Notes: a model not told the origin generated them from the sequence alone. Positions 8,006 through 31,565 are shown, counted from the first letter of the stretch. The stretch: 34,059 nt of DNA from Candidatus Neomarinimicrobiota bacterium (GCA_022567655.1 JADFGO010000013.1:1-34059); one strand, 5' to 3'. Numbers and translations: made by a program.

Positions 8006-9862
8006 CTACTGTCTTTCAGCCTCAAGAACGACTTTGCCCCAGTGAATTAATTGCGCGGCTCTTTCTATTGATTCGTTAGGAGGATGTTCGTAAAAATCTG
8101 CATCGGTATTTATAAACGGAATGCTCTGAAGATTATCGGTGCCGTTACGAACCAATTCGAGCACGCCGGCCGCTACACTGTTCAGCTTATACTCTCCGTC
8201 GAGCTTTCTGCCATTGTGGGCGGTTAGCGGAAAATCTCCTCTTATCCTCAAATCGAGCGCCTGGAGTGATACGAGAAGTTCCGCAGCCAGGACTTTTGTA
8301 ACGTTTTCTACAACCATTCTCAAATGACGCGCCGCTGTCGTTGACATTGCATTGTGGTCTTCGATATTTGCTGAGGTAGGGATGCTGTCAACGGACGAAG
8401 GGTGACATAATATTTTATTTTCCGCAACGAGGCTTGCAGCCATGTACTGATAAAGCATCATTCCGGAATCGAGTCCATCTGTTCCTGACGACAGATTCGC
8501 CGGCATCCCCCTGTTGTTTTTGGGGTCAAGAAGGAGCTGCATACGCCTTTCGGATATGCCGCCCAATTCTGCTATAGCTATTTTAAGGTAATCCGCCGCG
8601 AACCCTACCGGTTCGCCGTGAAAATTAGCGGCGGAATAAGTCTTCCATTCGCTGATGGAAGAGCTGTCATCGACACTGTCCGGGCTGTCCTCATCTTCGA
8701 TGAAGATGAGAGGATTATCAGTTGCAGAATTTATCTCTATCTCTATCTGCTCGTGCGTATGTGAAAGTGCGTCATGCACAGCGCCGTGTACTTGAGGTAT
8801 CGCTCGTATTGAATATTCGTCTTGCTGATGATGACCTTCTGCCGCTCTGTCAATAAGATTTGAGTCTTTTATATACCTGTTTATATCTTTTGCAACGGAA
8901 ATTTGTCCGCGGTAAGGTCTTGCTCTGTGAACTTTTTCATCGAACGCCCTGCTGAATCCCCCTAACGATTGAAGCGAGAGTGAACCGATAATGTTAGCAG
9001 TTTTAAGCACGACCGAAGAATCGAATATAGAAATAGCGGTTATCGCTGCGGAAATTGTTGCCCCATTGGTAAGAGCCAATCCTTCTTTTGGTGCGAGATG
9101 GATATTGACCTCACCCGAGTTTTTTATCGGTTCCGGCACGGGTGGAATCTGGAGACCCGCCGAGCTGAGGGCTTCATTTCCACTGACGGGGGGAGAATCT
9201 TTTTCGCCGTTTGATAGAAAATCAGGCTCGTGCCACGCTTTGCCCCCTCCGATCATCACTACCGCGAGGTGGGCTAATTGACAAAGGTCGCCTGAGGAAC
9301 CGAGACTTCCCTGCGACGGTATCAGCGGATGAACACAGTTATTCAGCATATCCCTCAGCAAGAATAGAATTTCCGGCCTGACTCCAGAGCGTCCTTCCGC
9401 AAACGCTCTCAGCCGTATCAGTATTGCCGCTCGAACTATTTCTACTGGAAGCGGATCACCAACGGCAGTTAAATGACTGTAAATCAAATTCACTGAAAGA
9501 CGGCATGCATCGGCATAACTCTTGATCGGCTTATCCTTATTGTTGCCGAAGCCGGTATTTACACCGTAAATCAGCTGGCGATAATCGATCTCGTCATCAT
9601 CGCCCAAACTTTTGGACAATTTTGCAGCAATATGAACGGCGTCGCTTATATATTCCGCGCTGCGTTCACATCTTGCAATGCTGAGGGGGTCTATTTCAAC
9701 CGTTGCGAAATTATTATTCGAATTCCCGCATGCGACCGCTATAAGTTGATTTATTGTTAATCTATGCTCGGGAAGATGGCTTAGAATGATGGGATAAGCC
9801 ACTTTCTCACCCATTATATCAATGAATTTCCCCCCGTTTTCACTCACTCTGATATCTCGCAA
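8006..9862 (-). CDS. hutH: Histidine ammonia-lyase-like MIO enzyme with Ser-Ser-Gly cofactor site
   Basis: The enzyme should deaminate histidine to urocanate and ammonia using the self-formed MIO electrophile. Conserved landmarks are YGVNTGFG (Y99), SH at 129-130 (the Ser-His pair typical of histidine over phenylalanine or tyrosine lyases), LTNG, QDEYSIRAIPQVHG, ATDNPLIF, NFHGEPVGFAADYL and SIPTSANIEDHNAMS. The MIO tripeptide at 189-191 is Ser-Ser-Gly in GSLGSSGDLCQLAH, where most relatives have Ala-Ser-Gly followed by DLAPL; the usual Pro is Gln. At 618 aa it is about 100 longer than typical HutH, with an N-terminal extension of about 47, an insertion before the LTNG segment and an acidic insertion (~400-420) before NFHGEP. 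The TTG start at 9862 overlaps hisS by 23 nt; GTG at 9847 or ATG at 9814 are alternatives. No hutU or hutI is nearby, so a non-catabolic role is possible. Confidence 0.85.
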   Translation of the reverse strand: MRDIRVSENGGKFIDIMGEKVAYPIILSHLPEHRLTINQLIAVACGNSNNNFATVEIDPLSIARCERSAEYISDAVHIAAKLSKSLGDDDEIDYRQLIYGVNTGFGNNKDKPIKSYADACRLSVNLIYSHLTAVGDPLPVEIVRAAILIRLRAFAEGRSGVRPEILFLLRDMLNNCVHPLIPSQGSLGSSGDLCQLAHLAVVMIGGGKAWHEPDFLSNGEKDSPPVSGNEALSSAGLQIPPVPEPIKNSGEVNIHLAPKEGLALTNGATISAAITAISIFDSSVVLKTANIIGSLSLQSLGGFSRAFDEKVHRARPYRGQISVAKDINRYIKDSNLIDRAAEGHHQQDEYSIRAIPQVHGAVHDALSHTHEQIEIEINSATDNPLIFIEDEDSPDSVDDSSSISEWKTYSAANFHGEPVGFAADYLKIAIAELGGISERRMQLLLDPKNNRGMPANLSSGTDGLDSGMMLYQYMAASLVAENKILCHPSSVDSIPTSANIEDHNAMSTTAARHLRMVVENVTKVLAAELLVSLQALDLRIRGDFPLTAHNGRKLDGEYKLNSVAAGVLELVRNGTDNLQSIPFINTDADFYEHPPNESIERAAQLIHWGKVVLEAERQ

Positions 9863-11333
9863 GAATCTGACTGACTGTTTTTATCAGGTCTGAACGGGGG
9901 ACAGTCACTTGTGAAGGTTGTTCTGCGAGCCACTCTTTGCGCTCCTGAAAACTCTCGGACAATTCCTTGCCGAGCATGAGGTCTTTGACTGTAACCTGAT
10001 CTTTGGCAAACTCATCAGATCCGACGATGACCGCTACGGCCGCTCCTCTTTTATCGGCGTATTTCATCTGTTTGTTGAAACCTCCACTGCCGAGATATGT
10101 CTCAGCTGAAATTCCGGAAGAGCGTAATTCGGATGTAATTTTTATATAGTCACTGATCTTATCGCTATCCATAACGGTTACGACAACGGGTGCGTTAATC
10201 AGAGTGTCTTTATTCTGTTTTATGGTTGATAGCGCAGCAAGAAGTCTATCCACGCCGATGGAAATACCGGTAGCTGGAGTTTTTTGTCCGGTAAACCGTT
10301 CTATAAGATCGTCGTACCTTCCTCCCCCGGCAACGCTGCCGAATTCTCTTTTACGGTTTTTCTCATCTTTGATTTCGAATGTCAAATTAGCCTCGAATAC
10401 CGGTCCGGTATAATATGCCATGCCTCTTACAACTGTCGGAGCAAACAAGATAGTGTCCTCGTCATATCCCATATCGTTCAGGTATGAGTCCATCTCACGG
10501 AGCTCCTCTAATCCTGTATGACCTTCGGGGCTCTCTTTCATAAATTCAGATAACGCATCGAGAACCTCACTCCTCGAATTTCGAGGAACCTCGAGAAACT
10601 GAACGATGACATCAACCTCCCGATCGGATAATTCAGCCCCTTTGATAAAAGCACCCGATTTGTCCTTCCTGCCGGAAGTAAGAAGTTGAGTTACGCCGTT
10701 AATACCCAACCTGTCCAGTTTATCAATACTTCTTAATACGTTTTGAGCAAGGTCCGAAAGCGAACCGTCGTTGTTTCTCACTTCAATACCGGCGGATTCT
10801 AACACGCCATTCACTATTTTGCGGTTACTTATTTTTACTTCAAAATCCTTTTTCTCGATCCCGAGCGCTTCGAAAGCATCAACCAGGGCAGCACAAACTT
10901 CACAATCAGCCAGGATTGAGGTAGTGCCGACCGTGTCAATGTCGAACTGAGTAAACTCCCTGAATCTTCCCGCTCCCGGTTTTTCAAGTCTCCATACTTT
11001 TCCTATCTGATATCTTCTGAAAGGTGTCGGAAGGTTCTGGTATTGGGCGATGACTCTTGAAAGAGGAGCGGTTAGATCGTACCGCAGCGCCACCCATTCA
11101 TCCTCAGATTCAAAGGCAAAAATGCCTTCCTCCGGTGTGTCACCGTCGGGTAGAAACTTTCCTAACACGTCCACATATTCAAGCGCCGGAGTCTCTATCT
11201 GTTGGAAGCCGTAAAGTTCGTAAACGGCTTGAATTCGCTCCAGCATCATTCTACGGTTGAAAGACTCACCCCAGAGCGAGTCTTTAAATCCTTTGACGGT
11301 ACGAGGTTTAGGTTTGATTGGTTTTTTTGTCAA
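9840..11333 (-). CDS. hisS: Histidyl-tRNA synthetase, alphaproteobacterial-like type
   Basis: This class II synthetase charges tRNA-His with histidine in the cytosol. At 497 aa it has motif 2 around PTPFRRYQIGKVWRLEKPG and GRFREFTQFDIDTVG, a histidine-binding segment GMAYYTGPVFE, the motif 3 region TGISIGVDRLLAAL, and a C-terminal anticodon-binding domain from ~400. The combination LGKFLPDGD, LRYDLTAPL, EKPGAGRFR and FDIDTVG matches, from memory, the divergent HisRS of Caulobacter and other alphaproteobacteria rather than the E. coli type. This fits the adjacent tRNA-His, which lacks G-1. The start is TTG 11333 with a weak ribosome site, about 106 nt after the tRNA. The 3' end overlaps hutH. 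Confidence 0.95.
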   Translation of the reverse strand: MTKKPIKPKPRTVKGFKDSLWGESFNRRMMLERIQAVYELYGFQQIETPALEYVDVLGKFLPDGDTPEEGIFAFESEDEWVALRYDLTAPLSRVIAQYQNLPTPFRRYQIGKVWRLEKPGAGRFREFTQFDIDTVGTTSILADCEVCAALVDAFEALGIEKKDFEVKISNRKIVNGVLESAGIEVRNNDGSLSDLAQNVLRSIDKLDRLGINGVTQLLTSGRKDKSGAFIKGAELSDREVDVIVQFLEVPRNSRSEVLDALSEFMKESPEGHTGLEELREMDSYLNDMGYDEDTILFAPTVVRGMAYYTGPVFEANLTFEIKDEKNRKREFGSVAGGGRYDDLIERFTGQKTPATGISIGVDRLLAALSTIKQNKDTLINAPVVVTVMDSDKISDYIKITSELRSSGISAETYLGSGGFNKQMKYADKRGAAVAVIVGSDEFAKDQVTVKDLMLGKELSESFQERKEWLAEQPSQVTVPRSDLIKTVSQILARYQSE

Positions 11334-11414
11334 TTTCTATATGGTATCCTTGCGAGTGAAGTTCTAAAAGCAAATGGAATCAGACTTATTCTGCACCCAA
11401 TATACACCAAACTT

Positions 11415-11437
11415 GATTACGGCTATCTATCGTAATC
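11415..11437 (-). other. Hairpin just after tRNA-His
   Basis: A perfect 7-bp inverted repeat, GATTACG/CGTAATC, with a 9-nt loop begins 3 nt after the tRNA 3' end on the minus strand. No T-run follows, so it looks like a processing or stabilising stem between the tRNA and the hisS message and less like a terminator. Confidence 0.45.
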
Positions 11438-11439
11438 AG

Positions 11440-11513
11440 TACTGGAGGCGGGAATCGAACCCGCGACCTCCTGATCCACAGTCAGGCGCTCTATCCATCT
11501 GAGCTACCCCAGC
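11440..11513 (-). tRNA. tRNA-His (GTG), lacking G-1 and with U72/A73
   Basis: This is a full 74-nt cloverleaf. The acceptor is GCTGGGG/CTCCAGT, the D stem GCTC/GAGC, the anticodon arm CCTGA-CTGTGGA-TCAGG with anticodon GTG, and the T arm GCGGG-TTCGAAT-CCCGC. Unlike nearly all bacterial tRNA-His there is no encoded G at -1 (the base there is T). Position 1-72 is G-U, the discriminator is A73, and the D-loop AGATGGATA places U at 20a. CCA is not encoded. These are the identity features reported for the Caulobacter crescentus tRNA-His. It lies directly upstream of hisS on the same strand. Confidence 0.95.
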
Positions 11514-11523: not shown

Positions 11524-11552
11524 AATATAGGCTGGATAACGATATAAATCAA
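11524..11552 (-). promoter_or_regulatory. Sigma-70-type promoter for tRNA-His (and possibly hisS-hutH)
   Basis: Read on the minus strand, the site has TTGATT (-35), a 17-nt spacer and TATATT (-10). The -10 ends 10 nt before the tRNA 5' end, giving a leader of only a few nucleotides. Confidence 0.6.
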
Positions 11553-11688: not shown

Positions 11689-11763
11689 GTCCCCATCGTC
11701 TAGCCAGGTTTAGGACTCAGGGTTTTCGACCCTGCAACAGGGGTTCAAATCCCCTTGGGGACA
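11689..11763 (+). tRNA. tRNA-Glu (TTC)
   Basis: This is a 75-nt cloverleaf with acceptor GTCCCCA/TGGGGAC and discriminator A. The D arm is GTCT/GGAC, the anticodon arm CAGGG-TTTTCGA-CCCTG with anticodon TTC, and the T arm AGGGG-TTCAAAT-CCCCT. CCA is not encoded. It is divergent from tRNA-His. The 220 nt after it, up to the next gene, show no further tRNA. Confidence 0.96.
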
Positions 11764-11983
11764 CAGAATGAAGTCATGGGAGGAGACAAGGATGTGCTCA
11801 ATAAGCACCAAAACGGGGCTCGCTAACAATTTATTTTTCCGTTGCGGCGCGTAAAAATGTTTAAACGAACACATCTGATTTTATATTCCGTGAAAACCTG
11901 TACCTTATTATTCAGGGTACTAAATATGGGAAAATAGATGAACCTATTCAGAAACAAAAAGACCTTGGGGATTAAATCCGGGT

Positions 11984-14287: not shown

Positions 14288-15724
14288 ATGAAAGTTTTAA
14301 ATCAGATAGATAAAGAGGAAATAGAGAAAACAGTAAATGAGGGAGGGCTTACCCTCTTATTATCCGTTGACGAAATGCGATTATACATGACATATGACCC
14401 GGAACTTAATGAGGGAACTCCTTCGTTAGACGTTGTGTACGCTCTTGCCGGAAAGCTTGGAGTGACTGGCGGTTTAATGGATAGCGTTGTCGAACATTAT
14501 ATCAATAACGAAGAATCATCCAATCATATTTTGATAGCCGAAGGATCACCGCCTAAAAATGGTTTTGACGCAAAAATTTTGTATGAATTTGATCTTTTAT
14601 CAGAAGGCGATTCACAGTATTTCCCAAGTAATACAATAGGAAAGACGCACTCTTCAGGGAAAATCCAAATTAGAAAAGGAGAGCTGATTGCCCAGAAACT
14701 TCCGGCAAGTAAAGGTTCGCCCGGAAGAACTCTCACCGGGGGAAAAATCGAATTTCAACCCGAAGATATTCCTCTTCCTTCAGGCAGAAATACACTGAAA
14801 TCAGCGGACGGTTTATCGTTAACTGCAGCGAAGAGCGGGATTATATCCACAGAAAATGATTTGGTGCATGTTGAGGATACATTCACCGTAGACGGAGATG
14901 TAGGTTACGATACGGGGAATATAGACTTTCTTGGAAATATAAAAATCAACGGCGACGTGAGACCGGGTTTCATAGTTGAAGCGGATGGTGATATAGAGAT
15001 TACGGGCTGCGCTGAATCTGCGAGGCTGATTTCGCGAAAAGGCAGTATCAGAGTATTACACGGGATATTAGGTAAGAACAAATCCAAGATCATCGCAGCA
15101 AAAGATCTGGAGACGGGATTTATTCAAGACGCAAATATCACTGTAGGGAATAACGTAATAGCCGGGAGATATATTTTGAATAGTGAATTAAATGCTGAGG
15201 GCTGTATCAGAGTACTCGACAGCGAAGGAACTATCAGGGGAGGGAAGATCAGTTCAAAAGAAAGCATAAGAGCGAAAGTTGCCGGATCTACAAAGAGGAT
15301 ACCGACACAGCTTAAGATCGGAAGGAACCTTGACGGTGCAGCGCTACAGAGAGTATTAGAATTAGATAAGCAGCTGAAAGAATTATCTCAAAAAATGAAG
15401 ACAAATGAAAGACAAATACAGTTTATCGAGTTGTTGGAAGAGCGGGTAGAAAAACTCCCGAGAGATAAGAAATCCGGTAAGGAACTATTAATTCATGCCA
15501 ACGAAGAAATCAGAGCTGAATTGGAAAGAATGAAAGAGGAGAAGGTCGGACTACTTGCCAATTCGCTGAACAAGGACGTCGAAAAGAAAATTGAGATCGT
15601 GTCAAAGGTATTTCCGGGTGTGATCATTAACATTGATACGGAGGAATATCTTGTGCAACAAGAGCTATTGGGATCGGTTTTCAAGCTCGAAGAAGGGGCT
15701 ATAACGGTTGAGCACAGAAAATAA
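14288..15724 (+). CDS. fapA: FapA / DUF342-family protein
   Basis: At 478 aa this matches the DUF342 (FapA) family: an N-terminal domain, then a glycine- and beta-rich region (~130-345) built of short repeats such as VDGDVGYDTGNIDFLGNIKINGDV and VEADGDIEITGCAESARLISRKG, typical of a polymer-like beta-helix, and a C-terminal coiled coil (~350-450). In Vibrio, FapA affects flagellar assembly and polar localisation; other members are linked to sporulation or cell-surface assembly. It is the first gene behind a sigma-54 promoter, overlaps the next regulator by 17 nt and lies just upstream of the flagellar genes, so a flagellar role is likely here. Biochemical function is unproven. The start is ATG 14288, with a weak ribosome site. 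Confidence 0.85.
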   Translation: MKVLNQIDKEEIEKTVNEGGLTLLLSVDEMRLYMTYDPELNEGTPSLDVVYALAGKLGVTGGLMDSVVEHYINNEESSNHILIAEGSPPKNGFDAKILYEFDLLSEGDSQYFPSNTIGKTHSSGKIQIRKGELIAQKLPASKGSPGRTLTGGKIEFQPEDIPLPSGRNTLKSADGLSLTAAKSGIISTENDLVHVEDTFTVDGDVGYDTGNIDFLGNIKINGDVRPGFIVEADGDIEITGCAESARLISRKGSIRVLHGILGKNKSKIIAAKDLETGFIQDANITVGNNVIAGRYILNSELNAEGCIRVLDSEGTIRGGKISSKESIRAKVAGSTKRIPTQLKIGRNLDGAALQRVLELDKQLKELSQKMKTNERQIQFIELLEERVEKLPRDKKSGKELLIHANEEIRAELERMKEEKVGLLANSLNKDVEKKIEIVSKVFPGVIINIDTEEYLVQQELLGSVFKLEEGAITVEHRK

Positions 15725-17096
15725 CACTGAACGAGTAATAATAATTGATGATGAAGTAGAAGTCGTATCCAGCCTCGTCGATCTTTTGAAAAGCAGCGGG
15801 ATTGAGGTTGAAGGGGAAACGGATTCTGAAAAATTTATCAAAAGGCTCGATGAAGAGCATTTTGATGTTATCGTCACGGATTTTAAGATGCCCCGAGTCT
15901 CAGGTCTTGATATTGCCCGCAAGGTGAACAAGGAGCGTTATGAGAGTGACGTAATAATAATCACCGGTTACGGGACGATGGATTTGGCAATACAATCGTT
16001 AAAACAGAATGTTTATGATTTCATACTGAAGCCTTTTAAGTACGAGGAGCTTATCCATACGATAGAGCTGGCGTTCGAAAGAAGAAGGTTAATAAATGAA
16101 ATCAAACAACTCTCTATAGAACGTGAAAAACATTTAAAAGAGTTGTCTACCTTGTATGACATCAATGACATCGTCGTAAATTCATCGAGCCGTGATGCTG
16201 TCTTGAGTTTTGCGAAAGATACACTCAGCATCGGAATAGGAATAAATTCCGCAGGGATTCTCTTGAATTCTAATGGATCCAACATTTACACACCTGCAAG
16301 GGGAGTCGGTGATTTTGAGAAGACCTTTCCGGATTTGTCAATAGACACAAACGACGAGAAGTTAATGACACTGATTAAAGGTAAAGGAATTGCCGAAATA
16401 GACGATCTCTCGATGCTCAATCATAGCTCTTATGATAGGAACGTAACCGATAACAGTAAGGTTTGGCTGATTCCAATGAATGTCAGTTCGCGGTTAGCAG
16501 GATTTATTTGCGTAGTTACCGATTCGAGTGAGGGACCCCTTTCTACCGAAAAACAGAAGCTATTAAGAGTTCTCGCAAACCAACTCGGTCCGCAACTAAG
16601 AATTATCGAAGAAGAAAACCGCATACCCTCTTATAGACAGGGTACTCTGGTTCGATTGAAAAAACGAATGAAGAAGTCAACGCAAATCGTTGATGCGTAT
16701 GGTGGGTCAGTAGCATTCGTTTTTTTCAGAGTAATTTTAAACTCCGATTCCCGTTTATCGGGTGAGACATTTTTAAAGGGTATGGAAACTTTAGGTTCTT
16801 TGATCCAGGAAAAAATTAATGAAAACGATGATCTGATGCAGATAGGTATAGACGCATTCTTAACATCATTATACGGAAGAAGTAAAATTGAAACTGAGCT
16901 TGTCGCGAACAGTATGAGCTATGATTTCCAATCAATATTGTCGGAATCCGTATCAAAAGAGATGGTGATAAATGTAAGCTCCACCTCGTATCCTGAGGAC
17001 GCCGATGATGTAATGCGCTTATATCATCAGCTGGTACATGAATACTCCTCATTTATAAATCAACCAACAATAAAGAAACAGAGACATGAGAATTAA
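15708..17096 (+). CDS. Response regulator REC-GAF with degenerate GGDEF domain
   Basis: The receiver (~8-125) has acceptor D58 in VIVTDFKMP and an ILKPF lysine motif. A coiled linker leads to a GAF-like region (~160-305). The C-terminal ~320-455 keeps the outline of a GGDEF cyclase, ending in VSSTSYPEDADDVMRLYHQL, the usual last strand and helix. The signature, however, is GIDAF at residues 380-384 instead of GG(D/E)EF, so it is probably not a diguanylate cyclase; it may bind nucleotide or act as a dimer scaffold. The GGDEF assignment is my own fold-pattern reading. The TTG start lies inside fapA, and its stop overlaps the next ATG by one base (TAATG), so the three genes are translationally coupled. 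Confidence 0.8.
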   Translation: MSTENNTERVIIIDDEVEVVSSLVDLLKSSGIEVEGETDSEKFIKRLDEEHFDVIVTDFKMPRVSGLDIARKVNKERYESDVIIITGYGTMDLAIQSLKQNVYDFILKPFKYEELIHTIELAFERRRLINEIKQLSIEREKHLKELSTLYDINDIVVNSSSRDAVLSFAKDTLSIGIGINSAGILLNSNGSNIYTPARGVGDFEKTFPDLSIDTNDEKLMTLIKGKGIAEIDDLSMLNHSSYDRNVTDNSKVWLIPMNVSSRLAGFICVVTDSSEGPLSTEKQKLLRVLANQLGPQLRIIEEENRIPSYRQGTLVRLKKRMKKSTQIVDAYGGSVAFVFFRVILNSDSRLSGETFLKGMETLGSLIQEKINENDDLMQIGIDAFLTSLYGRSKIETELVANSMSYDFQSILSESVSKEMVINVSSTSYPEDADDVMRLYHQLVHEYSSFINQPTIKKQRHEN

Positions 17097-18448
17097 TGAG
17101 AAAAAGAGAAATTTTGGTAGTAGATGATGAACCAAAAATCGGTCATTACCTTACAAAAGCATTAAATATAAAAAATTATCAAGTTCAAGTGGCTTCCCGC
17201 GGCAGCGAGGCATTAGAGATACTCAAGAAAAAATCGGTAGATTTGGTTATTACAGACCTTAAAATGCCAGAGATGACCGGATTGGATCTTTTAAAGAAAA
17301 TAAAAATGGAATCACCGCCTGTGGGAGTAATAGTAATGAGCGGTTACGGGACTATCGAAGAAGCGGTGGAGTCAATTAAATTTGGCGCATTCGACTTCAT
17401 TACAAAGCCGTTTACCATAAAAAAAATCTCGGAATTGACTAACAATTACTTTAAGTCGTATCAGGACAAGACGATTAATTCATTTAATACAGGTGACAAC
17501 CATTACGGTGATATGCTCGGGCGAAGCGACGCTATGAAGGAGATTTTTAATACTATAGACCACATAGCCCATACAGACGTTACTGTCTTTATTCAGGGGC
17601 CGACGGGAACCGGAAAAGAGATGGTGGCCAACGCACTGCAAGAAAGAAGTAAATTAAAAGATAAACCATACGTAAGAGTAAATTGCGCGGCATTGCCTGC
17701 CGGTCTTATGGAAAGTGAACTCTTTGGGCACGTAAGAGGTGCATTTACCGGAGCCGTGAAAGACAGAAAAGGAATGTTCGAACTTGCAAACGGGGGTACC
17801 ATTTTATTGGATGAAATAAGTGAAATGGAATTGGCGCTCCAGGCAAAGTTGCTTCGTGTGCTTCAAACAGGTGAAATCCAGCGTGTGGGCGACGAAAATT
17901 TCAAAAAGGTAAAAGTGAGGGTCATAGCCACTACTAATCGAAATATCGAGGATGAGATCAATGATGGTAACTTCAGGGAAGACTTATTTTATAGGTTGAA
18001 TGTCGTCCCGATATTTCTGCCGTCATTAAGTGAAAGGAAGGAGGACATACCCCTGTTAGCACATTATTTTGTCAGAAGAGTGGCGAGTAAATATGGCAAA
18101 CCCGAACTGCGTCTTTCGGAAGATTCTATCAAGACACTACTATCAATGGACTTCCCGGGTAATGTCAGGGAGTTGGAGAATAAGCTGGAACGAGCGGTTG
18201 TCCTGTCCAAAAATGATGAGTTATCGCCTGAGGATGTGCTTGAAGCGCTCGACGGTCGAGTAAGGGAGAAGAAACGCACACAGAATTCTTTTACTACCGG
18301 CACTATCGAAGGAGCGGAAAGAGAACTGATCTTAAACTCACTAAACTTCAACAACGGGAATAGATCCAAGACGGCAAAGGAACTGGGCATTACCGCCCGG
18401 ACGCTGCGTAATAAGATTAATCGGTACAGAAAAGAAGGCGTTCTCTAA
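17096..18448 (+). CDS. Sigma-54-dependent activator, probable flagellar master regulator
   Basis: This 450-aa NtrC-type protein has a receiver with D54 (VITDLKMPEM), an AAA+ domain with Walker A GPTGTGKE from residue 168, the GAFTGA loop at 215-220, Walker B GGTILLDEISEME, and a Fis-type helix-turn-helix at the end (NGNRSKTAKELGITARTLRNKI). It is the third gene of the fapA operon, and flgB follows after 198 nt. Sigma-54 promoters precede its own operon, flgB and flgD, so it most likely turns on flagellar genes as FlgR, FleQ or FleR do elsewhere, and may activate itself. Which kinase phosphorylates it is not visible here. Confidence 0.9.
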   Translation: MRKREILVVDDEPKIGHYLTKALNIKNYQVQVASRGSEALEILKKKSVDLVITDLKMPEMTGLDLLKKIKMESPPVGVIVMSGYGTIEEAVESIKFGAFDFITKPFTIKKISELTNNYFKSYQDKTINSFNTGDNHYGDMLGRSDAMKEIFNTIDHIAHTDVTVFIQGPTGTGKEMVANALQERSKLKDKPYVRVNCAALPAGLMESELFGHVRGAFTGAVKDRKGMFELANGGTILLDEISEMELALQAKLLRVLQTGEIQRVGDENFKKVKVRVIATTNRNIEDEINDGNFREDLFYRLNVVPIFLPSLSERKEDIPLLAHYFVRRVASKYGKPELRLSEDSIKTLLSMDFPGNVRELENKLERAVVLSKNDELSPEDVLEALDGRVREKKRTQNSFTTGTIEGAERELILNSLNFNNGNRSKTAKELGITARTLRNKINRYRKEGVL

Positions 18449-18463
18449 AATAATCAAGTCTTT

Positions 18464-18479
18464 GGGGAAGTTTTTCCCC
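18464..18479. terminator. GGGGAA/TTCCCC hairpin between the activator and flgB
   Basis: GGGGAA-GTTT-TTCCCC is a perfect 6-bp stem with a 4-nt loop, 16 nt after the activator stop. No T-run follows at once (ATTTTTCC comes 12 nt later). It may end the fapA operon, or be an activator site about 140 nt upstream of the flgB start site. Confidence 0.4.
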
Positions 18480-18600
18480 TGTACAAGGCAAATTTTTCCT
18501 ACTCGATGAATTAGATTCTGTTCAAAAAGAGAGATCCACAAATCTCTTAAACAATTAAATATCAACCAGATAGAAACTCTTGGTTATGCACAGATATTTG

Positions 18601-18616
18601 TGGCATACTAATTGTA
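18601..18616 (+). promoter_or_regulatory. Sigma-54-like promoter of the flagellar operon (variant -12)
   Basis: TGGCATACTAATTGTA is almost the same sequence as the fapA promoter at 14199, with identical spacing, but the -12 dinucleotide is GT instead of GC. Expected start near 18627, 20 nt before flgB; the flgB ribosome site GGAG follows. Confidence 0.6.
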
Positions 18617-18646
18617 ATCATTGATTTCGATGGAATGGAGACTTGA

Positions 18647-19060
18647 ATGATTAACGATATTATCGGTAATAAGACACTAATACCCATTCTAAAAAAAATC
18701 CTTGATTTAGGAGCTGTCAGGCACCGGGTTATCGCACAGAACATTGCGAACGTATCTACGAACGGCTACCGGAAAAAATCAGTAGATTTCGAGGAAAGTT
18801 TACAATCTCTATTACAGATGCATCGAGAGGGATCAATGACGGAAGCCGGAGATTTTGATGACATGGAAAACGCGGCTGTAGTTGATTTTAAGATAGTCGA
18901 GTCCAGCAAAAAACCCGATGCCGGCGCACCCAACAATGTAAATATAAATGAGGAAATGGCTGATTTGGCAAGAAACCATTTGTATTACAAGTTTGCGGTG
19001 AATATGATGAGAAGGCAGCTTGCCAGTCTCAAATCAAGTATAACAGGAAGGGTAAGGTAG
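18647..19060 (+). CDS. flgB: Flagellar proximal rod protein FlgB
   Basis: FlgB forms part of the proximal rod that crosses the periplasm. At 137 aa it has the rod-protein N-terminus (HRVIAQNIANVSTNGYRKKSVDFEESL, ~27-53) and the C-terminal helical segment NINEEMADLARNHLYYKFAVNMMRRQLASLKSSI, which gives its coiled-coil packing. There is no signal peptide, as expected for a substrate of the flagellar export system. The ATG has GGAG 6 nt upstream. It is the first gene of the cluster, 3 nt before flgC. Confidence 0.95.
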   Translation: MINDIIGNKTLIPILKKILDLGAVRHRVIAQNIANVSTNGYRKKSVDFEESLQSLLQMHREGSMTEAGDFDDMENAAVVDFKIVESSKKPDAGAPNNVNINEEMADLARNHLYYKFAVNMMRRQLASLKSSITGRVR

Positions 19061-19062
19061 TT

Positions 19063-19518
19063 ATGCCGAGGTTAAGCGGAATATTCGGAGCTCTCGGTAT
19101 CAGTGCAAGCGGTATGACCGCTCAAAGGGCAAGGATAGATGCAATATCCTCGAACGTCGCAAATATTCACACAACCAGGGTTGAAGGCGGGTCTTACTAC
19201 AAGAGGCAAACTGTAATACTTAAGGAAAAAAAGAATGCCTCGGACTTTAGCAGTCTTCTCATTAGCGAATTAGGATCAAACTTCGGCAAAGAGTTTTCAG
19301 GCGTTGAAGTTCTGAGCATTCAAAGGATTAACGAATCCCCGAAACTGATATATGAGCCCGATCATCCGGACGCAGACGAAGAGGGAATGGTGAGTTATCC
19401 AAATATTAATATTATCGAAGAAATGGTAAACATGATTATGTCGTCGAGAGCATTTGAAGCGAATCTGACGGTATTTAATACAGCTAAAGAGATGATATCG
19501 CAATCCCTGGAAATTTAG
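19063..19518 (+). CDS. flgC: Flagellar proximal rod protein FlgC
   Basis: This 151-aa rod protein has the conserved N-terminal FlgC motif (ALGISASGMTAQRARIDAISSNVANIHTTR) and the C-terminal INIIEEMVNMIMSSRAFEANLTVFNTAKEMI, shared by the axial rod and hook family. The YPNIN motif before the C-terminal helix is typical of FlgC. It is exported through the flagellar apparatus and has no signal peptide. It follows flgB by 2 nt and precedes an unknown small gene. Confidence 0.95.
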   Translation: MPRLSGIFGALGISASGMTAQRARIDAISSNVANIHTTRVEGGSYYKRQTVILKEKKNASDFSSLLISELGSNFGKEFSGVEVLSIQRINESPKLIYEPDHPDADEEGMVSYPNINIIEEMVNMIMSSRAFEANLTVFNTAKEMISQSLEI

Positions 19519-19533
19519 GAGAACTGTTATACA

Positions 19534-19860
19534 ATGAAAATTAATCCTATTGCAGCACAATATTTAAAACTAAGCTCGAACGCAATTTCGCTTTATAAGC
19601 CGGATCAAACTTCGGAGAGTCCGGAAAGCCCGGAAGAAAATCCTGCGAAAAAAAACAGTCCTCTTCACACTAAATCGGCCAGCAGTGATCCAACTTCAAG
19701 TAACAGCATTTTAAGGGAATTATTAAGCGCCGATGAGCAGAGTTCCATAAAAAAACTATTCGGCTCCGATGCGTTACTGAAAGTCAAAAGCTTGATTGAT
19801 AATAATGAAGAAAAAATCAGTGATCTGCCAAGAGGCATGCTTGTAAACATCAAGATTTGA
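19534..19860 (+). CDS. Small unknown protein in the flagellar operon (between flgC and fliE)
   Basis: I do not recognise this 108-aa protein with confidence. It has a polar, Ser/Pro/Lys-rich middle (~24-60, probably disordered), a short helical part ELLSADEQSSIKKLFGSDAL and a C-terminal GMLVNIKI. The LLS..EQ...KKLFG pattern recalls small uncharacterised proteins coded next to rod genes in some other phyla, and the N-terminus MKINPI recalls anti-sigma FlgM, but its C-terminus does not match FlgM. The ribosome site AGGAG is 11 nt before ATG 19534. fliE follows after 12 nt. Its position suggests a rod or early assembly role. Confidence 0.75.
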   Translation: MKINPIAAQYLKLSSNAISLYKPDQTSESPESPEENPAKKNSPLHTKSASSDPTSSNSILRELLSADEQSSIKKLFGSDALLKVKSLIDNNEEKISDLPRGMLVNIKI

Positions 19861-19872
19861 TTTACGCATTCG

Positions 19873-20166
19873 ATGAAATCAATAGATCAAATAAGACACG
19901 TAATACCGGGAATAAAGCTTCCTGCAAAGATAAGTCATGATCAAAAAACCGGCAGCGGAATTTCATTTAGCAGCTTTCTCGGAGAGGTGAATGCGGCACA
20001 AAAAGCCGCCGGAGAAAAAATAATCGGCGTTGTGAGCGGAGAAGTCGAAGATCTGCATGATGCCATGATAGCCGTAGAAAAGGCTGGGCTGAGCTTTCAG
20101 ATATTGTTGGAGTTTAGAAATAAGCTTATGGAAACATATCAAGAAATAATGCGAATGCGTTTTTAA
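19873..20166 (+). CDS. fliE: Flagellar MS ring-rod junction protein FliE
   Basis: FliE joins the MS ring to the rod and is the first export substrate. At 97 aa it is the usual size. The N-terminal half is polar with ISFSSFLGEVNAAQKAAG, and the C-terminal end has the diagnostic VEDLHDAMIAVEKAGLSFQILLEFRNKLMETYQEIMRMRF. It sits between the unknown gene and fliF as in most flagellar operons. The ATG at 19873 has only a weak ribosome site, so coupling to the upstream gene is possible. Confidence 0.95.
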   Translation: MKSIDQIRHVIPGIKLPAKISHDQKTGSGISFSSFLGEVNAAQKAAGEKIIGVVSGEVEDLHDAMIAVEKAGLSFQILLEFRNKLMETYQEIMRMRF

Positions 20167-20184
20167 TTTATAGGAGAATGAATT

Positions 20185-21750
20185 TTGGCTGAACAATTCG
20201 GAAACATATTTTCCGGTCTTTCGGGTGTCTTCTGGCAGATGACCGCTCGTCAAAAAGCGGAATTGCTGATGATAACGATCCTGACCATAACAGCCCTTGT
20301 GCTTGTGGCGTGGTGGGCTGGTCAAACGGAGTATGAGGTTCTATTCTATGAAATGGCAGCAAGCGATGTAGGCTCCATTGTAAACAAATTAAAAGAGAAT
20401 GATATCAGCTATAAGATCGACCAGGGCGGAACCAGGATTCTTGTTCCTACCAAAATGGTTCAGGAATTAAGGATCGACTTTGCTCAACAAGGGTTCCCCG
20501 AGTCAGGTCTCGTAGGATACGAAATATTCGATCAGTCAAATTTAGGGATGTCAAATTTTGTCCAAAAAATAAATTACAGAAGAGCTCTTGAAGGTGAATT
20601 AGCCCGTACTCTGATTCATATGACCGAAATAAAAAATGCGAGAGTTCATATTGTTATACCCGAAGAAAAGTTGTTCAAAGAAGACAAACAATCCCCTTCG
20701 GCTGCGGTGATATTGACCTTAGCGCGTTCCAATAGCCTGTCGCAAAGTCAAATTAAAGGAGTAGCGCGACTTATCGCCAGCAGCGTTGAGGGGTTGCGGT
20801 CTGATCAAATAACGATAGTGGACTCACACGGCAACGTGCTTTCAAAAGGTGAAGAATCGGGTGAACTATTAGCGAGTACGGGAAATCAATTGGAAATCCA
20901 GATGGCTGTGGAGACAGAGCTGATGAAAAAATCACAAGCGATGTTAGAAAGCGTAGTAGGAGTCAATAATTCCATAGTCAGAGTGAATGTCGAGCTTGAT
21001 TTCGAGAGCATCCAGAAGACAAGCGAATCGTACGATCCGGACGGGCAGGTGATCAGAAGCGAACAGTTCACGACTACGGCGTCAACCGCAACCGATACAT
21101 CTCAATCGAGTAAAGAGACGAGTACGACAAAGTATGAAATAAATAGAACCGTCGAAACTGTGATGAATTCCGGAGGAGGAATAAAAAGGATGACTATTGC
21201 CGTACTCGTTAACGGCAAATATGTCGAATACGATGATCCCGATGGCGGAGAGAAACCAGTGATAAAGTATGAACCTCGCACCCCGAAAGAAATCACCAAT
21301 CTGACGAATATAGTGAAGACCGCCGTAGGATTTGATGAGGAGAGAGGTGATAAAATCGAAGTTATCGGTATGCAATTTGAAAATTCAGGATTGCTCGCAA
21401 ATCTTGAAACATCAGAGGACGATGGTTTCCAACTCGATTACATGAATCTCGCAAAAAACGCCGGCATGGTATTAGTCGCTTTGGCAGCTCTTTTCATACT
21501 GCGTTCGATGTCCAAAAAAGCGGGTCCAATAAGAATGACTTCATCCGGTCAGTCTAATTACGCTTCTTTGAGTGCAGCGAACGTTGGTACGATAGCTCTG
21601 CCCAATGAATCCGACCTACCGAAATTAGGGGAATCGGTGCTGCCCGAAGCTATGGAGCGGACGAAAATACATAATCAGATTGAGAGATATTCAAAAGAAA
21701 AATCTTCAGAAGCCACCAGTTTACTGAGAAGTTGGCTTATGGAGGATTGA
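20185..21750 (+). CDS. fliF: Flagellar MS-ring protein FliF
   Basis: FliF forms the ring in the inner membrane on which the flagellum is built. At 521 aa it is at the short end of the normal range. A transmembrane helix lies at ~28-48 (ITILTITALVLVAWW), then the YscJ-like ring domains (EYEVLFYEMAASDVGSIVNKLKENDI; the VHIVIPEEKLF strand), a ring domain ending in KIEVIGMQF, a second transmembrane helix (~430-450) and a C-terminal tail ending RSWLMED that binds FliG. The TTG start at 20185 has TAGGAG about 9 nt upstream. fliG follows after 3 nt. Confidence 0.96.
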   Translation: MAEQFGNIFSGLSGVFWQMTARQKAELLMITILTITALVLVAWWAGQTEYEVLFYEMAASDVGSIVNKLKENDISYKIDQGGTRILVPTKMVQELRIDFAQQGFPESGLVGYEIFDQSNLGMSNFVQKINYRRALEGELARTLIHMTEIKNARVHIVIPEEKLFKEDKQSPSAAVILTLARSNSLSQSQIKGVARLIASSVEGLRSDQITIVDSHGNVLSKGEESGELLASTGNQLEIQMAVETELMKKSQAMLESVVGVNNSIVRVNVELDFESIQKTSESYDPDGQVIRSEQFTTTASTATDTSQSSKETSTTKYEINRTVETVMNSGGGIKRMTIAVLVNGKYVEYDDPDGGEKPVIKYEPRTPKEITNLTNIVKTAVGFDEERGDKIEVIGMQFENSGLLANLETSEDDGFQLDYMNLAKNAGMVLVALAALFILRSMSKKAGPIRMTSSGQSNYASLSAANVGTIALPNESDLPKLGESVLPEAMERTKIHNQIERYSKEKSSEATSLLRSWLMED

Positions 21751-21753
21751 TAA

Positions 21754-22782
21754 TTGCCCGGAATTTCTAATTCAGGTACATCGGCGCTCAACCTTTCGGG
21801 CTTGAGAAAGGCAGCTATACTCTTAGTTGCTATGGGTGAAGAAGCTTCTTCACACATATTTAAAAATCTGAGCGATTCTGAAATAGAATTGCTCACGAAA
21901 GAGATATCTATTCTAAACAACATTCAGGCTAACGTAATCTCCAACGTAACTGAAGAATTTTATAACATGGTCTTGGCACAGAATTACATCGCCGCCGGTG
22001 GGCCAAAATACGCAAAAAGAATTCTCGAAAAGGCACTTGATAAAGAAAAGGCGAAAGAAGTTCTTAAGAAGGTCCAGAGATCTTTAGAAGTCAAAGGATT
22101 TAATATCCTGAAGGACGTTGATTCAAACCAGTTGTTGGCATTTATTCAAAAAGAACACCCTCAAACGATAGCTCTCGTACTCACACAGATCGAAATAGAA
22201 CAGGCATCAAGTATATTAGCTGACCTGCCGGCGGAACTGAGGAAAGACGTTGTGCATAGGTTTGCTACAATGGATACAGTACCGCAGGATATGGTCACGG
22301 AGATCGAAAAAATACTTGAATCCCGGATTGATTTTGGCCAGGGAGGTCATAAGCTGGGCGGGGTTAAGGCTACAGCCGAGATATTGAATATGGTTGGCAG
22401 GTCTGTCGAGAAAAATATCCTTGAAGGGTTAAGCAAATTCGATCCGGAGCTAGCCACAGAGATAAAGAATTTGATGTTCGTCTTCGAGGATATTCTGATA
22501 TTAGACGATAGGTCGATACAAAGAGTGTTGAAAGAAATCGACAGCAAAGAACTCTCACTCGCCCTCAAAGCTGTCAGCGATGAGGTGAAGGAAAAAATTC
22601 TTTCCAACATGTCCGAGAGAGCTTCTCAAATGGTGATTGAGGAGATGGACTATCTCGGTCCGGTAAGACTCAGGGAAGTCGAAGAGGCACAACAGAGAAT
22701 TGTCGAATCGATTCGGATGCTTGAGGATGAAGGAGAGATCGTGATACTAATGGCTTCAAAGGGTGAAGAATTAGTTGTATAG
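21754..22782 (+). CDS. fliG: Flagellar motor switch protein FliG
   Basis: FliG is the rotor part that receives torque from MotA. At 342 aa it is the normal length. Visible parts are an N-terminal FliF-binding domain (LSGLRKAAILLVAMGEEASSHIFKNLSDSEIE), the middle EHPQTIALVLTQIEIEQASSILADLP with the EHPQ motif, and the C-terminal charged torque helix (DDRSIQRVLKEIDSKELSLALKAVSDEVKEKILSNMSERA). The TTG start at 21754 has GGAGG in the fliF 3' end as ribosome site. The stop lies within the start of fliH. Confidence 0.97.
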   Translation: MPGISNSGTSALNLSGLRKAAILLVAMGEEASSHIFKNLSDSEIELLTKEISILNNIQANVISNVTEEFYNMVLAQNYIAAGGPKYAKRILEKALDKEKAKEVLKKVQRSLEVKGFNILKDVDSNQLLAFIQKEHPQTIALVLTQIEIEQASSILADLPAELRKDVVHRFATMDTVPQDMVTEIEKILESRIDFGQGGHKLGGVKATAEILNMVGRSVEKNILEGLSKFDPELATEIKNLMFVFEDILILDDRSIQRVLKEIDSKELSLALKAVSDEVKEKILSNMSERASQMVIEEMDYLGPVRLREVEEAQQRIVESIRMLEDEGEIVILMASKGEELVV

Positions 22783-23464
22783 CACCATCATTAAGTCGAC
22801 GGCTACGAAGGATAGCGTCCGGCGGCTGTCGAGACGAGCCAGATCCGACAAAGGGGAATTCACCGATCCAATAGAGGAGATGGATTCTGTTATAGCCGAG
22901 GGCGGCTACATGTGGAAGCTCTGGTCTGAAGTCAAAGAACAAATTCAACAGATGGTTGATTCAGCGAAGGATGGTGGATTTAAAGAGGGCAAAGATGCCG
23001 GATTCTCTGAGTTAAAGGATCAAATGAATGAATTTAATGAAATGGTGTTAACATTTAAGGCGGGTACACTGAGTTTCTTCGAGGAAACCGAGAAGTTTGT
23101 ATTGCGCATGTCCATCAAGATCGCTGAGAAAATTCTTCAGAAGAAGTTTGTTGAAGAAGATGACTTCACACTTACTATAGTTCAAAATGCGCTGAAAACA
23201 GTGCGGGATAGTATAAATTTATTCATCAGGGTTAATCCGGACGATTACGAATTTATTAAAAGTATGGACTCGCAGTTATCCTCAGAGAGTTCGAATGTCA
23301 AAATTTCCGGCGATGAAGAAATTGAGAGAGGGGGGTGTAAAATAGAATCTGATTGGGGGCTGGTCGACGCCCGGATCGATACTCAGCTGGAAAAAATCTA
23401 TTCTGAACTCGTTAAACCGAAAAACAAAGAACCGGCTTCTATCGATGACAGCGATACTGGATAA
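22775..23464 (+). CDS. fliH: Flagellar export ATPase regulator FliH
   Basis: FliH binds and restrains the FliI ATPase and links it to the C ring. At 229 aa it has a polar N-terminus, a GFKEGKDAGF segment (~72-81) that is a short form of the GxxxG repeat of FliH, and a C-terminal HrpE/YscL-like domain with VLRMSIKIAEKILQKKF and FIRVNPDDYEFIKS, ending GCKIESDWGLVDARIDTQLEKI. The TTG at 22775 overlaps the fliG end by 8 nt, and fliI starts within its 3' end by 20 nt, so translation is coupled. Confidence 0.92.
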   Translation: MYSTIIKSTATKDSVRRLSRRARSDKGEFTDPIEEMDSVIAEGGYMWKLWSEVKEQIQQMVDSAKDGGFKEGKDAGFSELKDQMNEFNEMVLTFKAGTLSFFEETEKFVLRMSIKIAEKILQKKFVEEDDFTLTIVQNALKTVRDSINLFIRVNPDDYEFIKSMDSQLSSESSNVKISGDEEIERGGCKIESDWGLVDARIDTQLEKIYSELVKPKNKEPASIDDSDTG

Positions 23465-24806
23465 GTACTTAGATAATCTTGATACGATTCAGTCTCAAAA
23501 TTTTAGCGGAATTGTAACCAACGTTGTAGGGTTAATCATTGAATCGAAAGGACCGAAAGCTTTTGTAGGTGAGATATGCAATATAGTTTCAGAAGACGGT
23601 ATAAATAAAGGGAAAGTCGAGGTAATCGGGTTCAGAAATAAATTTTTGATTTTAATGTCGTTAGGTAGAATAAATGACATCAAACTCGGTGACCGTGTGG
23701 TGGGAGAATCTGAAAAGTTTGTTATACCTGTCGGCAGATCATTGTTAGGCAGAATTTTAAACGGAATGGGTGAGCCAATCGACGGCTTAGGCCCACTCCA
23801 TGTGGAAGAGATGAGACCTGTTCATAATTCTCCGCCAAATCCCTTGGACAGAAAGCGAATCACGGAACAATTATATACCGGCGTAAGGAGTATAGACGTT
23901 TTTAATGCCTGCGGAAAAGGTCAGCGAACAGGGATATTTGCAGGAAGTGGCGTAGGTAAGAGCGTGATCCTGGGGATGATAGCAAGAAATACGAGTGCTG
24001 ATGTGAACGTTATCGCATTGATAGGCGAGAGAGGACGGGAAGTAAAAGAGTTTATCGAAAATGATCTGGGGTCGGAGGGGCTGAAGCGTTCTGTTGTAGT
24101 TACTGTAACCTCGGACGAAGCCGCACTTTTAAAGATAAAAGCTATTTTAACGGCCAATACGATAGCGGAATACTTCAGGGACGAAAGACTCGACGTAATG
24201 TTATTAGTAGATTCACTCAGCAGAACAGCGACTGCGCAGCGTGAAATAGGATTGGCGGTAGGGGAACTCCCAACTACAAAAGGCTATACCCCGTCTGTTT
24301 TCTCCATGCTGCCTAAGATAGTTGAAAGAGCCGGCTGCAATTCTGAAGGAAGCATCACGGGCTTTTATACTGTATTAGTTGAAGGGGATGAGATGGACGA
24401 TCCGGTGGCAGACGCTGTTCGATCATACCTTGACGGACATATAGTGTTATCAAGGAAATTGGCTCTTAAAAACAGATTTCCCGCCATCGACATATTACAA
24501 AGCATGAGCAGGCTGATGAAAGACATTTCATCCGATGACCATAAGTTATTAGCGGATGACGTCAGGAGTAACCTGGCATATTATGAAGAAGCGGAGGATT
24601 TAATTAATATTGGAGCTTATACAAAGGGCAACGATCCAAAGATAGACCGCGCAATGGATGTGATCGATAATCTCACAGCATTTATGATTCAAAAAATCGA
24701 TGAAAAATCCGACCTGGAATCTGATTTGAAATCGTTGGCACAGATATTGCGACCTATTGAATTAAAAACGGAAAATATAAGTGAAGAAGTTCAGGTTCAG
24801 ACTTGA
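23445..24806 (+). CDS. fliI: Flagellum-specific export ATPase FliI
   Basis: FliI is the hexameric cytosolic ATPase of the flagellar type III export gate, related to F1 beta. At 453 aa it is normal length. It has Walker A GSGVGKS at 167-173 in GIFAGSGVGKSVILGMIARN, the segment IGERGREVKEFIE, Walker B LDVMLLVDSLSRTATAQREIGLA, and the export-ATPase segment FTVLVEGDEMDDP with DGHIVLSR. The first ~100 residues form the N-terminal beta barrel. ATG 23445 lies within fliH. The 3' end overlaps fliJ by 26 nt. Confidence 0.97.
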   Translation: MTAILDKYLDNLDTIQSQNFSGIVTNVVGLIIESKGPKAFVGEICNIVSEDGINKGKVEVIGFRNKFLILMSLGRINDIKLGDRVVGESEKFVIPVGRSLLGRILNGMGEPIDGLGPLHVEEMRPVHNSPPNPLDRKRITEQLYTGVRSIDVFNACGKGQRTGIFAGSGVGKSVILGMIARNTSADVNVIALIGERGREVKEFIENDLGSEGLKRSVVVTVTSDEAALLKIKAILTANTIAEYFRDERLDVMLLVDSLSRTATAQREIGLAVGELPTTKGYTPSVFSMLPKIVERAGCNSEGSITGFYTVLVEGDEMDDPVADAVRSYLDGHIVLSRKLALKNRFPAIDILQSMSRLMKDISSDDHKLLADDVRSNLAYYEEAEDLINIGAYTKGNDPKIDRAMDVIDNLTAFMIQKIDEKSDLESDLKSLAQILRPIELKTENISEEVQVQT

Positions 24807-25257
24807 AAAAGTGCTACAGGCGAAGATGATTCAAGAGAGAGTGAAATTGAAAGAAGTAACCAAAATAGAAAATGAAATTCAAAAGTTGAGAGACGCTCTC
24901 GAAGCTATCAGGAGTCGATATAGGGATACGATTCAATCGATCATAACTCAACGCCTCGGAAATTTATCAAGCATAGAATTGAAGCGCACTTTAGCTTACA
25001 AAGAACGATTGACATCAAATGAATCGGCTCAGCTGCTCGACATTCAAAGTGCTGATAAAAAAATGGAAGAGATCAAGAAAGAGTTAGCAACTGCTAATAT
25101 GGAACGTAAAGCGATCGAGAATCTAAAAGAGAAAAAGAAGCACGCGTACAAAAAGAATTACCTTAAATCAGAACAGACTATAAACGACGATATTTCAGTG
25201 CGAAATAGAGGGTCAGTTTTTCCGGTTCAAACCGTTATAGAGGAAAATATTGCCTGA
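24781..25257 (+). CDS. fliJ: Flagellar export chaperone FliJ
   Basis: FliJ is a two-helix coiled coil that inserts in the FliI hexamer and escorts export chaperones. This 158-aa protein begins KKFRFRLEKVLQAKMIQERVKLKEV and remains charged and helical throughout, as in FliJ. Sequence conservation in the family is low, so the call rests on size, the start motif and position right after fliI. The start is GTG at 24781, inside the fliI 3' end. The motE-like gene begins inside its own 3' end. Confidence 0.88.
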   Translation: MKKFRFRLEKVLQAKMIQERVKLKEVTKIENEIQKLRDALEAIRSRYRDTIQSIITQRLGNLSSIELKRTLAYKERLTSNESAQLLDIQSADKKMEEIKKELATANMERKAIENLKEKKKHAYKKNYLKSEQTINDDISVRNRGSVFPVQTVIEENIA

Positions 25258-26005: not shown

Positions 26006-26006
26006 G

Positions 26007-28001: not shown

Positions 28002-28169
28002 TTCTCTAAGAAATAAGGAAAAAGTTCCCCTATTAGGTCGGAAAAATCTTCCACCACTTTATCAGAACTGTCCAGAAGTAATTTAGACACATATTATTAA
28101 ACCTTTAAAAACCTTACGAATATTAGCTTTCCCGGAGATACCAATCATCAACGCAAGTGATTCGAGATT
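28002..28169. other. Intergenic region fliK-flgD
   Basis: This AT-rich spacer has no gene. It ends at the sigma-54 promoter of flgD. I see no clear terminator after fliK; enhancer sites for the upstream activator would be expected here or within fliK. Confidence 0.4.
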
Positions 28170-28185
28170 TGGCACGTAACTTGCC
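28170..28185 (+). promoter_or_regulatory. Near-consensus sigma-54 promoter of flgD
   Basis: TGGCACGTAACTTGCC has the full TGGCACG and TTGC elements with the proper 10-nt gap between GG and GC. The start should fall near 28196, ahead of the ribosome site AGGAGAGGAG. It rules out an upstream start for flgD at 28189. Confidence 0.85.
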
Positions 28186-28215
28186 TTTATGTCTGTGAAA
28201 TACAAGGAGAGGAGT

Positions 28216-31492: not shown

Positions 31493-31508
31493 TCCTAGGG
31501 TGAACGCA

Positions 31509-31554: not shown

Positions 31555-31565
31555 ACTACAGGCAT

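What the first reader, a model, noticed from the sequence alone, without database searches (positions are those of the whole stretch)
9840..11513. Alphaproteobacterial-type HisRS and G-1-less tRNA-His side by side in a lineage that does not look alphaproteobacterial
Seen: tRNA-His has T at -1, G1-U72, A73 and U20a, and no encoded G-1:C73 pair. The adjacent hisS has segments such as LGKFLPDGD, EKPGAGRFR and FDIDTVG. Known: Caulobacter HisRS is divergent, needs no G-1, and reads the anticodon, A73 and U72, helped by U20a; this was thought to belong to alphaproteobacteria and a few suspected recipients. Inferred: the gene pair moved together, or the trait arose more widely. Linkage of the tRNA to its synthetase would give a simple vehicle for such co-transfer.
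Basis: partly seen in the sequence, partly recalled or inferred. Interest (0 to 1): 0.8.

Follow-up and report, generated by a model that had tools for sequence, protein, structure and literature searches.

The report
Transplanted histidine tRNA–synthetase gene pair
A family of Neomarinimicrobiota bacteria reads histidine codons with a tRNA lacking the near-universal extra G and with the matching unusual enzyme; the two genes sit side by side, and the same pair, side by side, turns up in other bacterial phyla, so a tRNA identity rule thought special to some Alphaproteobacteria has probably spread as a linked gene pair.

Summary
Confirmed. The window holds the only tRNA-His (11440-11513, minus) and only hisS (9840-11333, minus) of a 96.6%-complete Neomarinimicrobiota genome. 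The tRNA has no G-1 and has G1-U72, A73 and U20a. The genome has no Thg1. All four family genomes in which this hisS was found have the same linked pair; the rest of the phylum has canonical HisRS and G-1:C73 tRNA-His. The enzyme belongs to the Caulobacter (RRCH) type (clade support 100/99) but is not nested in Alphaproteobacteria, which form their own clade (99/99). The same HisRS type occurs in five genomes of other phyla. Two of these, and one SAR11-like alphaproteobacterium, also have a G-1-less, A73 tRNA-His directly upstream of hisS. On the HisRS tree the tRNA trait changes once; on an rpoB tree it needs at least five changes. The window's tRNA is 88% identical to that of another phylum and at most 75% to its own phylum's. 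Best reading: a linked tRNA-His/HisRS pair that entered horizontally and replaced the native pair; 'alphaproteobacterial' names one user, not the source. Charging was not tested, donor and direction are unresolved, and the other phyla are unnamed in the data.

The parts
11440..11513 (-). tRNA-His (anticodon GTG), 74 nt without CCA; T at -1, G1-U72, A73, U20a
   Evidence: the only tRNA-His in the genome
9840..11333 (-). hisS, histidyl-tRNA synthetase of the Caulobacter (RRCH) type, 497 aa, TTG start
   Evidence: the only hisS in the genome; tree
10965..10985 (-). HisRS motif-2 loop EKPGAGR (residues 117-123), Gly where canonical enzymes have Gln (RPQ-KGR)
   Evidence: alignment; Gly/Gln covariation with tRNA-His described in PMC3937112
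10635..10673 (-). Extra segment GRKDKSGAFIKGA (residues 221-233) of the insertion domain; overlaps two short strands (221-223, 229-231) of the model, a possible beta-hairpin; found only in HisRS of this type
   Evidence: alignment; model
10404..10427 (-). Histidine-specific motif RGMAYYTG (RGLDYYTG in canonical HisRS)
   Evidence: alignment
11524..11552 (-). Promoter-like TTGATT-17-TATATT just upstream of tRNA-His; TATATT present at this place in all four family members; no terminator-like site before hisS, so joint transcription is plausible
   Evidence: (one site found, 1.1 expected by chance)
11689..11764 (+). tRNA-Glu (TTC), divergent neighbour conserved in the family; landmark, not part of the pair

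Best explanation
This is a G-1-independent histidine charging pair of the Caulobacter type, held as a two-gene unit (tRNA-His, then hisS) and the only histidine pair of its host. The inferred mechanism: RNase P cuts at position +1; HisRS, with Gly in the motif-2 loop and an extra segment in its insertion domain, recognises the GUG anticodon, A73 and U72 and needs no G-1:C73 pair. An ancestor of this Neomarinimicrobiota family received both genes together. Because the incoming enzyme and tRNA fit each other and (by the Caulobacter precedent) ignore the native pair, the unit worked at once and the native canonical pair was lost. Linkage removes the usual barrier to transferring a synthetase with foreign tRNA rules. 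Shown: anatomy, sole-copy status, family restriction, kinship of both genes with other phyla, repeated linkage. Inferred: RNase P cleavage, charging, order of events, donor.
For: tRNA features. One hisS, one tRNA-His, no Thg1. In the phylum search only the own genome and three family members carry this HisRS, none of the 195 other genomes; the others have canonical HisRS, and all 28 tRNA-His read from them have G-1 and C73. HisRS clade 100/99, with shared motif-2 Gly and insertion. The same type in G454, G481, G566, G537, G463, which the rpoB tree places in lineages apart from alphas and apart from Neomarinimicrobiota. tRNA-His is G-1-less with A73 in all four of these where it was found; the RRCH alphas read all have G1-U72 and A73, and position -1 is not conserved in them; the other HisRS types read have G-1:C73. 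One change on the HisRS tree, at least five on the rpoB tree. Linked tRNA-His in f1 4/4, G481, G566 and a SAR11-like alpha, against 1 of 50 hisS loci of other types (Fisher p 0.003 with f1 counted once and non-alpha lineages only). Window tRNA-His is 88% identical to G481's and 87% to G454's, against at most 75% for the own-phylum tRNAs compared (at most 79% for any family member), the same grouping as the HisRS tree. The native tRNA-His/tRNA-Pro neighbourhood common in the phylum has no tRNA-His or recognisable relic here.
Against: No biochemical test. After dropping the recognition positions, the tRNA body advantage is small (56/65 against 51/66 for the window, 53/65 for the closest family member), and one canonical-type tRNA (G486) is nearly as close. 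In G454 the pair is not linked, and in G463 and G537 no tRNA-His lies within 500 bp upstream of hisS, so linkage is not universal. G481 and G566 were not checked for a second, canonical pair.
Confidence: 0.75

Rival explanations
1. Only the HisRS gene was transferred; the native tRNA-His was then adapted in place (loss of G-1, C73 to A73, C72 to U72) and later moved next to hisS. This is the model Ardell and Andersson proposed for Alphaproteobacteria.
For: tRNA bodies are alike across bacteria, so the kinship signal is weak once recognition sites are removed. Most alphas have the two genes apart.
Against: The whole f1 tRNA-His, including acceptor stem GCTGG and anticodon arm, is closer to G481 and G454 than to its own phylum. 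The linked order recurs in unrelated lineages. A separate adaptation and a separate move would be needed each time.
Confidence: 0.13
2. Direct transfer of the pair from an alphaproteobacterium.
For: Nearest named HisRS are alphaproteobacterial, about 52%; f1 as sister to alphas is not rejected (AU 0.41); a SAR11-like alpha has the linked order.
Against: RRCH alphas are one clade without f1 (99/99); other phyla are equally close (52-53%) and their tRNA-His is closer; no linked pair in any of the 75 named alpha loci with enough upstream sequence.
Confidence: 0.1
3. Ancient vertical inheritance of the type in many phyla with loss almost everywhere.
For: G454, an rpoB neighbour of Neomarinimicrobiota, also has it.
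Against: Found only in the own genome and three family members among 199 genomes of the phylum; five or more changes on the rpoB tree; both an identity-rule change and a synthetase swap would be needed at each loss.
Confidence: 0.05
4. The reader's features are real but G-1 is added after transcription, so the charging system is ordinary.
For: Eukaryotes add G-1 opposite A73 with Thg1.
Against: No Thg1 homologue in the genome, while the control search rings in Methanosarcina; the HisRS is of the type whose Caulobacter member needs no G-1 (PMC9976931).
Confidence: 0.03

Closest known systems
Divergent HisRS/tRNA-His pair of the RRCH Alphaproteobacteria (Caulobacter, Sinorhizobium; Wang 2007, Yuan 2011, Ardell and Andersson 2006)
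   Same: No conserved G-1, G1-U72, A73, no Thg1, Gly in motif-2 loop, extra insertion-domain segment, HisRS in one clade
   Different: Host is Neomarinimicrobiota; tRNA and synthetase genes adjacent; sequence lies outside the alphaproteobacterial clade; CCA not encoded
SAR11 HisRS/tRNA-His, for which Wang et al. discussed co-transfer (PMC3937112)
   Same: Same trait; one SAR11-like genome (G296, L243) has tRNA-His 5 bp before hisS
   Different: There the recipient is an alphaproteobacterium; here the pair crosses phyla
Archaeal TyrRS/TrpRS with matching tRNA identity in CPR bacteria (PMC5370408)
   Same: A bacterium using a foreign synthetase together with foreign tRNA identity rules
   Different: Different amino acids and source; no adjacent tRNA-synthetase pair of the histidine kind was compared here
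G-1-less tRNA-His of Acanthamoeba and Trypanosoma (PMC4284800)
   Same: HisRS acts without G-1
   Different: Eukaryotic enzymes said there to lack similarity to the bacterial ones

Membership tests
Caulobacter-type (RRCH) HisRS/tRNA-His pair | tRNA-His gene without G at -1 | tested here: met
   T, T, T, C at -1 in four family members
Caulobacter-type (RRCH) HisRS/tRNA-His pair | A73 and U72 | tested here: met
   G1-U72, A73 in all four
Caulobacter-type (RRCH) HisRS/tRNA-His pair | Gly instead of Gln in the HisRS motif-2 loop | tested here: met
   EKPG-AGRFR in window against RPQ-KGR in canonical enzymes
Caulobacter-type (RRCH) HisRS/tRNA-His pair | HisRS groups with RRCH enzymes | tested here: met
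   clade 100/99
Caulobacter-type (RRCH) HisRS/tRNA-His pair | no Thg1, sole histidine pair | tested here: met
   (genome 96.6% complete)
Caulobacter-type (RRCH) HisRS/tRNA-His pair | charging without G-1; mature tRNA starts at +1 | not testable with these tools
   needs in vitro charging and 5'-end mapping
Alphaproteobacterial lineage of this HisRS type | sequence inside the alphaproteobacterial clade | tested here: not met
   alphas monophyletic without f1, 99/99
Canonical bacterial pair | encoded G-1:C73 | tested here: not met
   T-1, A73
Eukaryote-like A73 with Thg1-added G-1 | Thg1 gene | tested here: not met
   no match to PF04446
HisZ (HisRS-like regulatory subunit, no charging) | scores above the HisZ family cut-off | tested here: not met
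   TIGR00443 173 bits against 271.65; TIGR00442 370 against 286.75

The most novel reading that the evidence does not exclude
The G-1-less histidine system of Alphaproteobacteria did not arise there. It is a linked tRNA-His/HisRS unit that arose in another bacterial lineage (the basal G463 form has no G-1 and A73 but still C1-G72) and spread between phyla as a ready-made identity-rule swap, Alphaproteobacteria being one recipient in which the two genes later came apart.
Probability: 0.45. Interest if true: 0.85.

Novelty: new member of a known kind. Interest (0 to 1): 0.72.

Why it matters
G-1 of tRNA-His is among the most conserved tRNA identity elements, and its loss in bacteria is described in the papers read as a peculiarity of some Alphaproteobacteria. 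Where that system came from (eukaryotic transfer, convergence, in-place adaptation) is disputed. Finding it as an adjacent gene pair in several phyla, with the tRNA trait following the enzyme rather than the organism, makes co-transfer of an identity rule testable and supplies new outgroups to root the alphaproteobacterial case. It also offers further candidates for orthogonal histidine pairs.

Tried and rejected
Contamination by an alphaproteobacterial contig: rejected, since four family genomes share the locus and the 4-mer make-up of each hisS stretch best matches the rpoB locus of the same genome (only marginally for G566). Viral carrier: an IMG/VR scan found no relative, phage records hold only distant HisRS, and the closest plasmid hits are alphaproteobacterial replicons. 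Origin of the tRNA from another tRNA of the same genome: all own tRNAs are less alike. Relic of the native tRNA-His at the tRNA-Pro locus: none. tRNA-Glu covariation (U15/G48): not pursued, because the one alpha sequence looked at did not show it clearly. Search for the G537 tRNA-His in 0.96 Mb of its genome: not found. Naming the other phyla from RpoB against PDB: shows only that G481 and G566 are distant from solved RpoBs. First HisRS tree, which lacked the other phyla, left f1 at the base of the alphas, with nesting inside them allowed; superseded.

Full report
Observation. The tRNA-His gene lies at 11440-11513 on the minus strand. Read 5' to 3' it is GCTGGGG...CCTCCAGTA, with T at -1, G1-U72, A73, U20a and no encoded CCA. 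The hisS gene (9840-11333, minus, TTG start) begins 105 bp downstream and passes the hisS family cut-off, not the HisZ one. A promoter-like site precedes the tRNA and no terminator-like site separates the two genes (the single promoter match is no more than chance would give, but TATATT is kept in all four relatives). Joint transcription is therefore plausible, not shown.

Host. The window is contig 13 of a 2.14 Mb genome, 96.6% complete. A genome of the same family is named Candidatus Neomarinimicrobiota (L050; its contig has the same length as G008:C38), and rpoB places the window genome with other genomes of the phylum. The genome has one hisS, one tRNA-His among 42 tRNA matches and no Thg1. 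A refuting second pair was not found.

Family restriction. Among 199 genomes of the phylum this HisRS occurs only in the own genome and three others of the same family (the fifth, 69% complete, gave none). In all four a tRNA-His lies 90-139 bp upstream of hisS, and tRNA-Glu further out. The other genomes carry canonical HisRS. All 28 tRNA-His genes read from them have G at -1 and C73, and many stand next to tRNA-Pro. In the window genome the tRNA-Pro(TGG) locus has no tRNA-His or recognisable relic of one.

Kinship of HisRS. A named-genome scan returned Rhodobacteraceae and other RRCH alphas at about 46-53% identity. That scan is peptide-biased, so wider sampling was needed. A search reaching other phyla found the same type at 43-53% in G454, G566, G481, G537 and G463. 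Their rpoB genes place G454 beside Neomarinimicrobiota, G537 outside E. coli plus alphas, and G566, G463 and G481 elsewhere; none is an alphaproteobacterium. In the careful tree the whole type is one clade (100/99) with G463 at its base, alphas are one clade (99/99), and the window family joins G454 and G481 (86/95). The order among G566, the window group and the alphas is open, and AU tests do not decide it. The type shares EKPG-PGRFR in the motif-2 loop (DKPE in G463; one alpha, L249, deviates) and an extra segment GRKDxSGxFxxGA in the insertion domain, absent from the other HisRS types aligned. The model (mean pLDDT 86.8) is a standard HisRS fold closest to Elizabethkingia, Nostoc and human enzymes, and two short strands lie in the extra segment.

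The tRNA follows the enzyme. tRNA-His of G454, G481 and G566 has no G-1 and has G1-U72 and A73. G463, the basal enzyme, goes with T-1, C1-G72 and A73. RRCH alphas read here all have G1-U72 and A73; a few happen to have G at -1, but that position is not conserved in them. Genomes with sister HisRS types, including alphas with a third HisRS type, have G-1:C73. The trait changes once on the HisRS tree and at least five times on the rpoB tree; the rpoB sample was chosen to include carriers, so five describes this sample only. The window tRNA-His is 88% identical to G481's and 87% to G454's, 69-82% to those of six alphas, and 70-75% to its own phylum's; the highest own-phylum value for any family member is 79%. 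With recognition positions removed the lead shrinks (window: 56/65 against 51/66), so co-transfer is favoured but not proven by sequence alone.

Linkage. tRNA-His within 500 bp upstream of hisS and on the same strand: window family 4/4, other phyla of this type 2/5 (G481 79 bp, G566 84 bp), named alphas 0/75, sampled alphas 1/29, canonical Neomarinimicrobiota 0/30, other HisRS types 1/20. The one alpha is L243, a 1.2 Mb, 29% GC genome that looks like SAR11 (inference), with a G-1-less A73 tRNA-His 5 bp before hisS. PMC3937112 reports that co-transfer into SAR11 had been discussed by Wang et al..

Mechanism. From the Caulobacter work, as reviewed in PMC9976931, this kind of HisRS reads A73, U72 and the anticodon; that G-1 brings no gain, and the role of U20a, are my recollection of Yuan 2011, which is not held here. 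The window pair has the same determinants, so the same mode of recognition is inferred. A linked, mutually matched and probably orthogonal pair can be taken up without first retraining a native tRNA, which explains how an identity rule could cross phyla. The C. crescentus and E. coli pairs are reported to be orthogonal (PMC3875453).

Literature. Reviews read here limit bacterial G-1 loss to a group of alphas (PMC4284800; PMC6471195). One paper leans to convergence rather than eukaryotic transfer (PMC5370408). No held paper ties the trait to Marinimicrobia. The three primary papers are not held, so exceptions they may list outside alphas could not be checked.

Verdict.

Noticed in passing
L370 1411-1486 (G463) and L283: The basal member of the HisRS type goes with a tRNA-His that has T at -1 and A73 but C1-G72: a possible intermediate step in loss of the G-1:C73 rule.
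   Followed up: partly
L282 3043-3118 (G537): A tRNA-Ala(GGC) stands 87 bp upstream of hisS, exactly where other lineages have tRNA-His; the genome's own tRNA-His was not found.
   Followed up: partly
L299 1118-1192 (G574): A different HisRS type (about 37% identical) has a canonical G-1:C73 tRNA-His 314 bp upstream, so tRNA-synthetase linkage is not confined to the G-1-less type.
   Followed up: no
L250-L263: A third HisRS type (32-42% identical to the window enzyme) occurs in part of the Alphaproteobacteria sample, with canonical G-1:C73 tRNA-His in the five such genomes whose tRNA-His was read.
   Followed up: partly
L243 1419-1495: A SAR11-like alphaproteobacterium keeps tRNA-His 5 bp upstream of hisS, next to tRNA-Phe; its relative L249 has tRNA-Phe there but no tRNA-His.
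   Followed up: partly
window 14288-33554: A long run of flagellar genes (FapA, FliF, FliG, FliI-type ATPase, FlgE, MotA, MotB by Pfam) with sigma-54 regulators in a Neomarinimicrobiota genome.
   Followed up: no
window 8006-9862 (minus): An aromatic amino acid lyase next to hisS that resembles histidine ammonia-lyase but scores below the curated cut-offs; its ORF overlaps the end of hisS by 23 bp.
   Followed up: no
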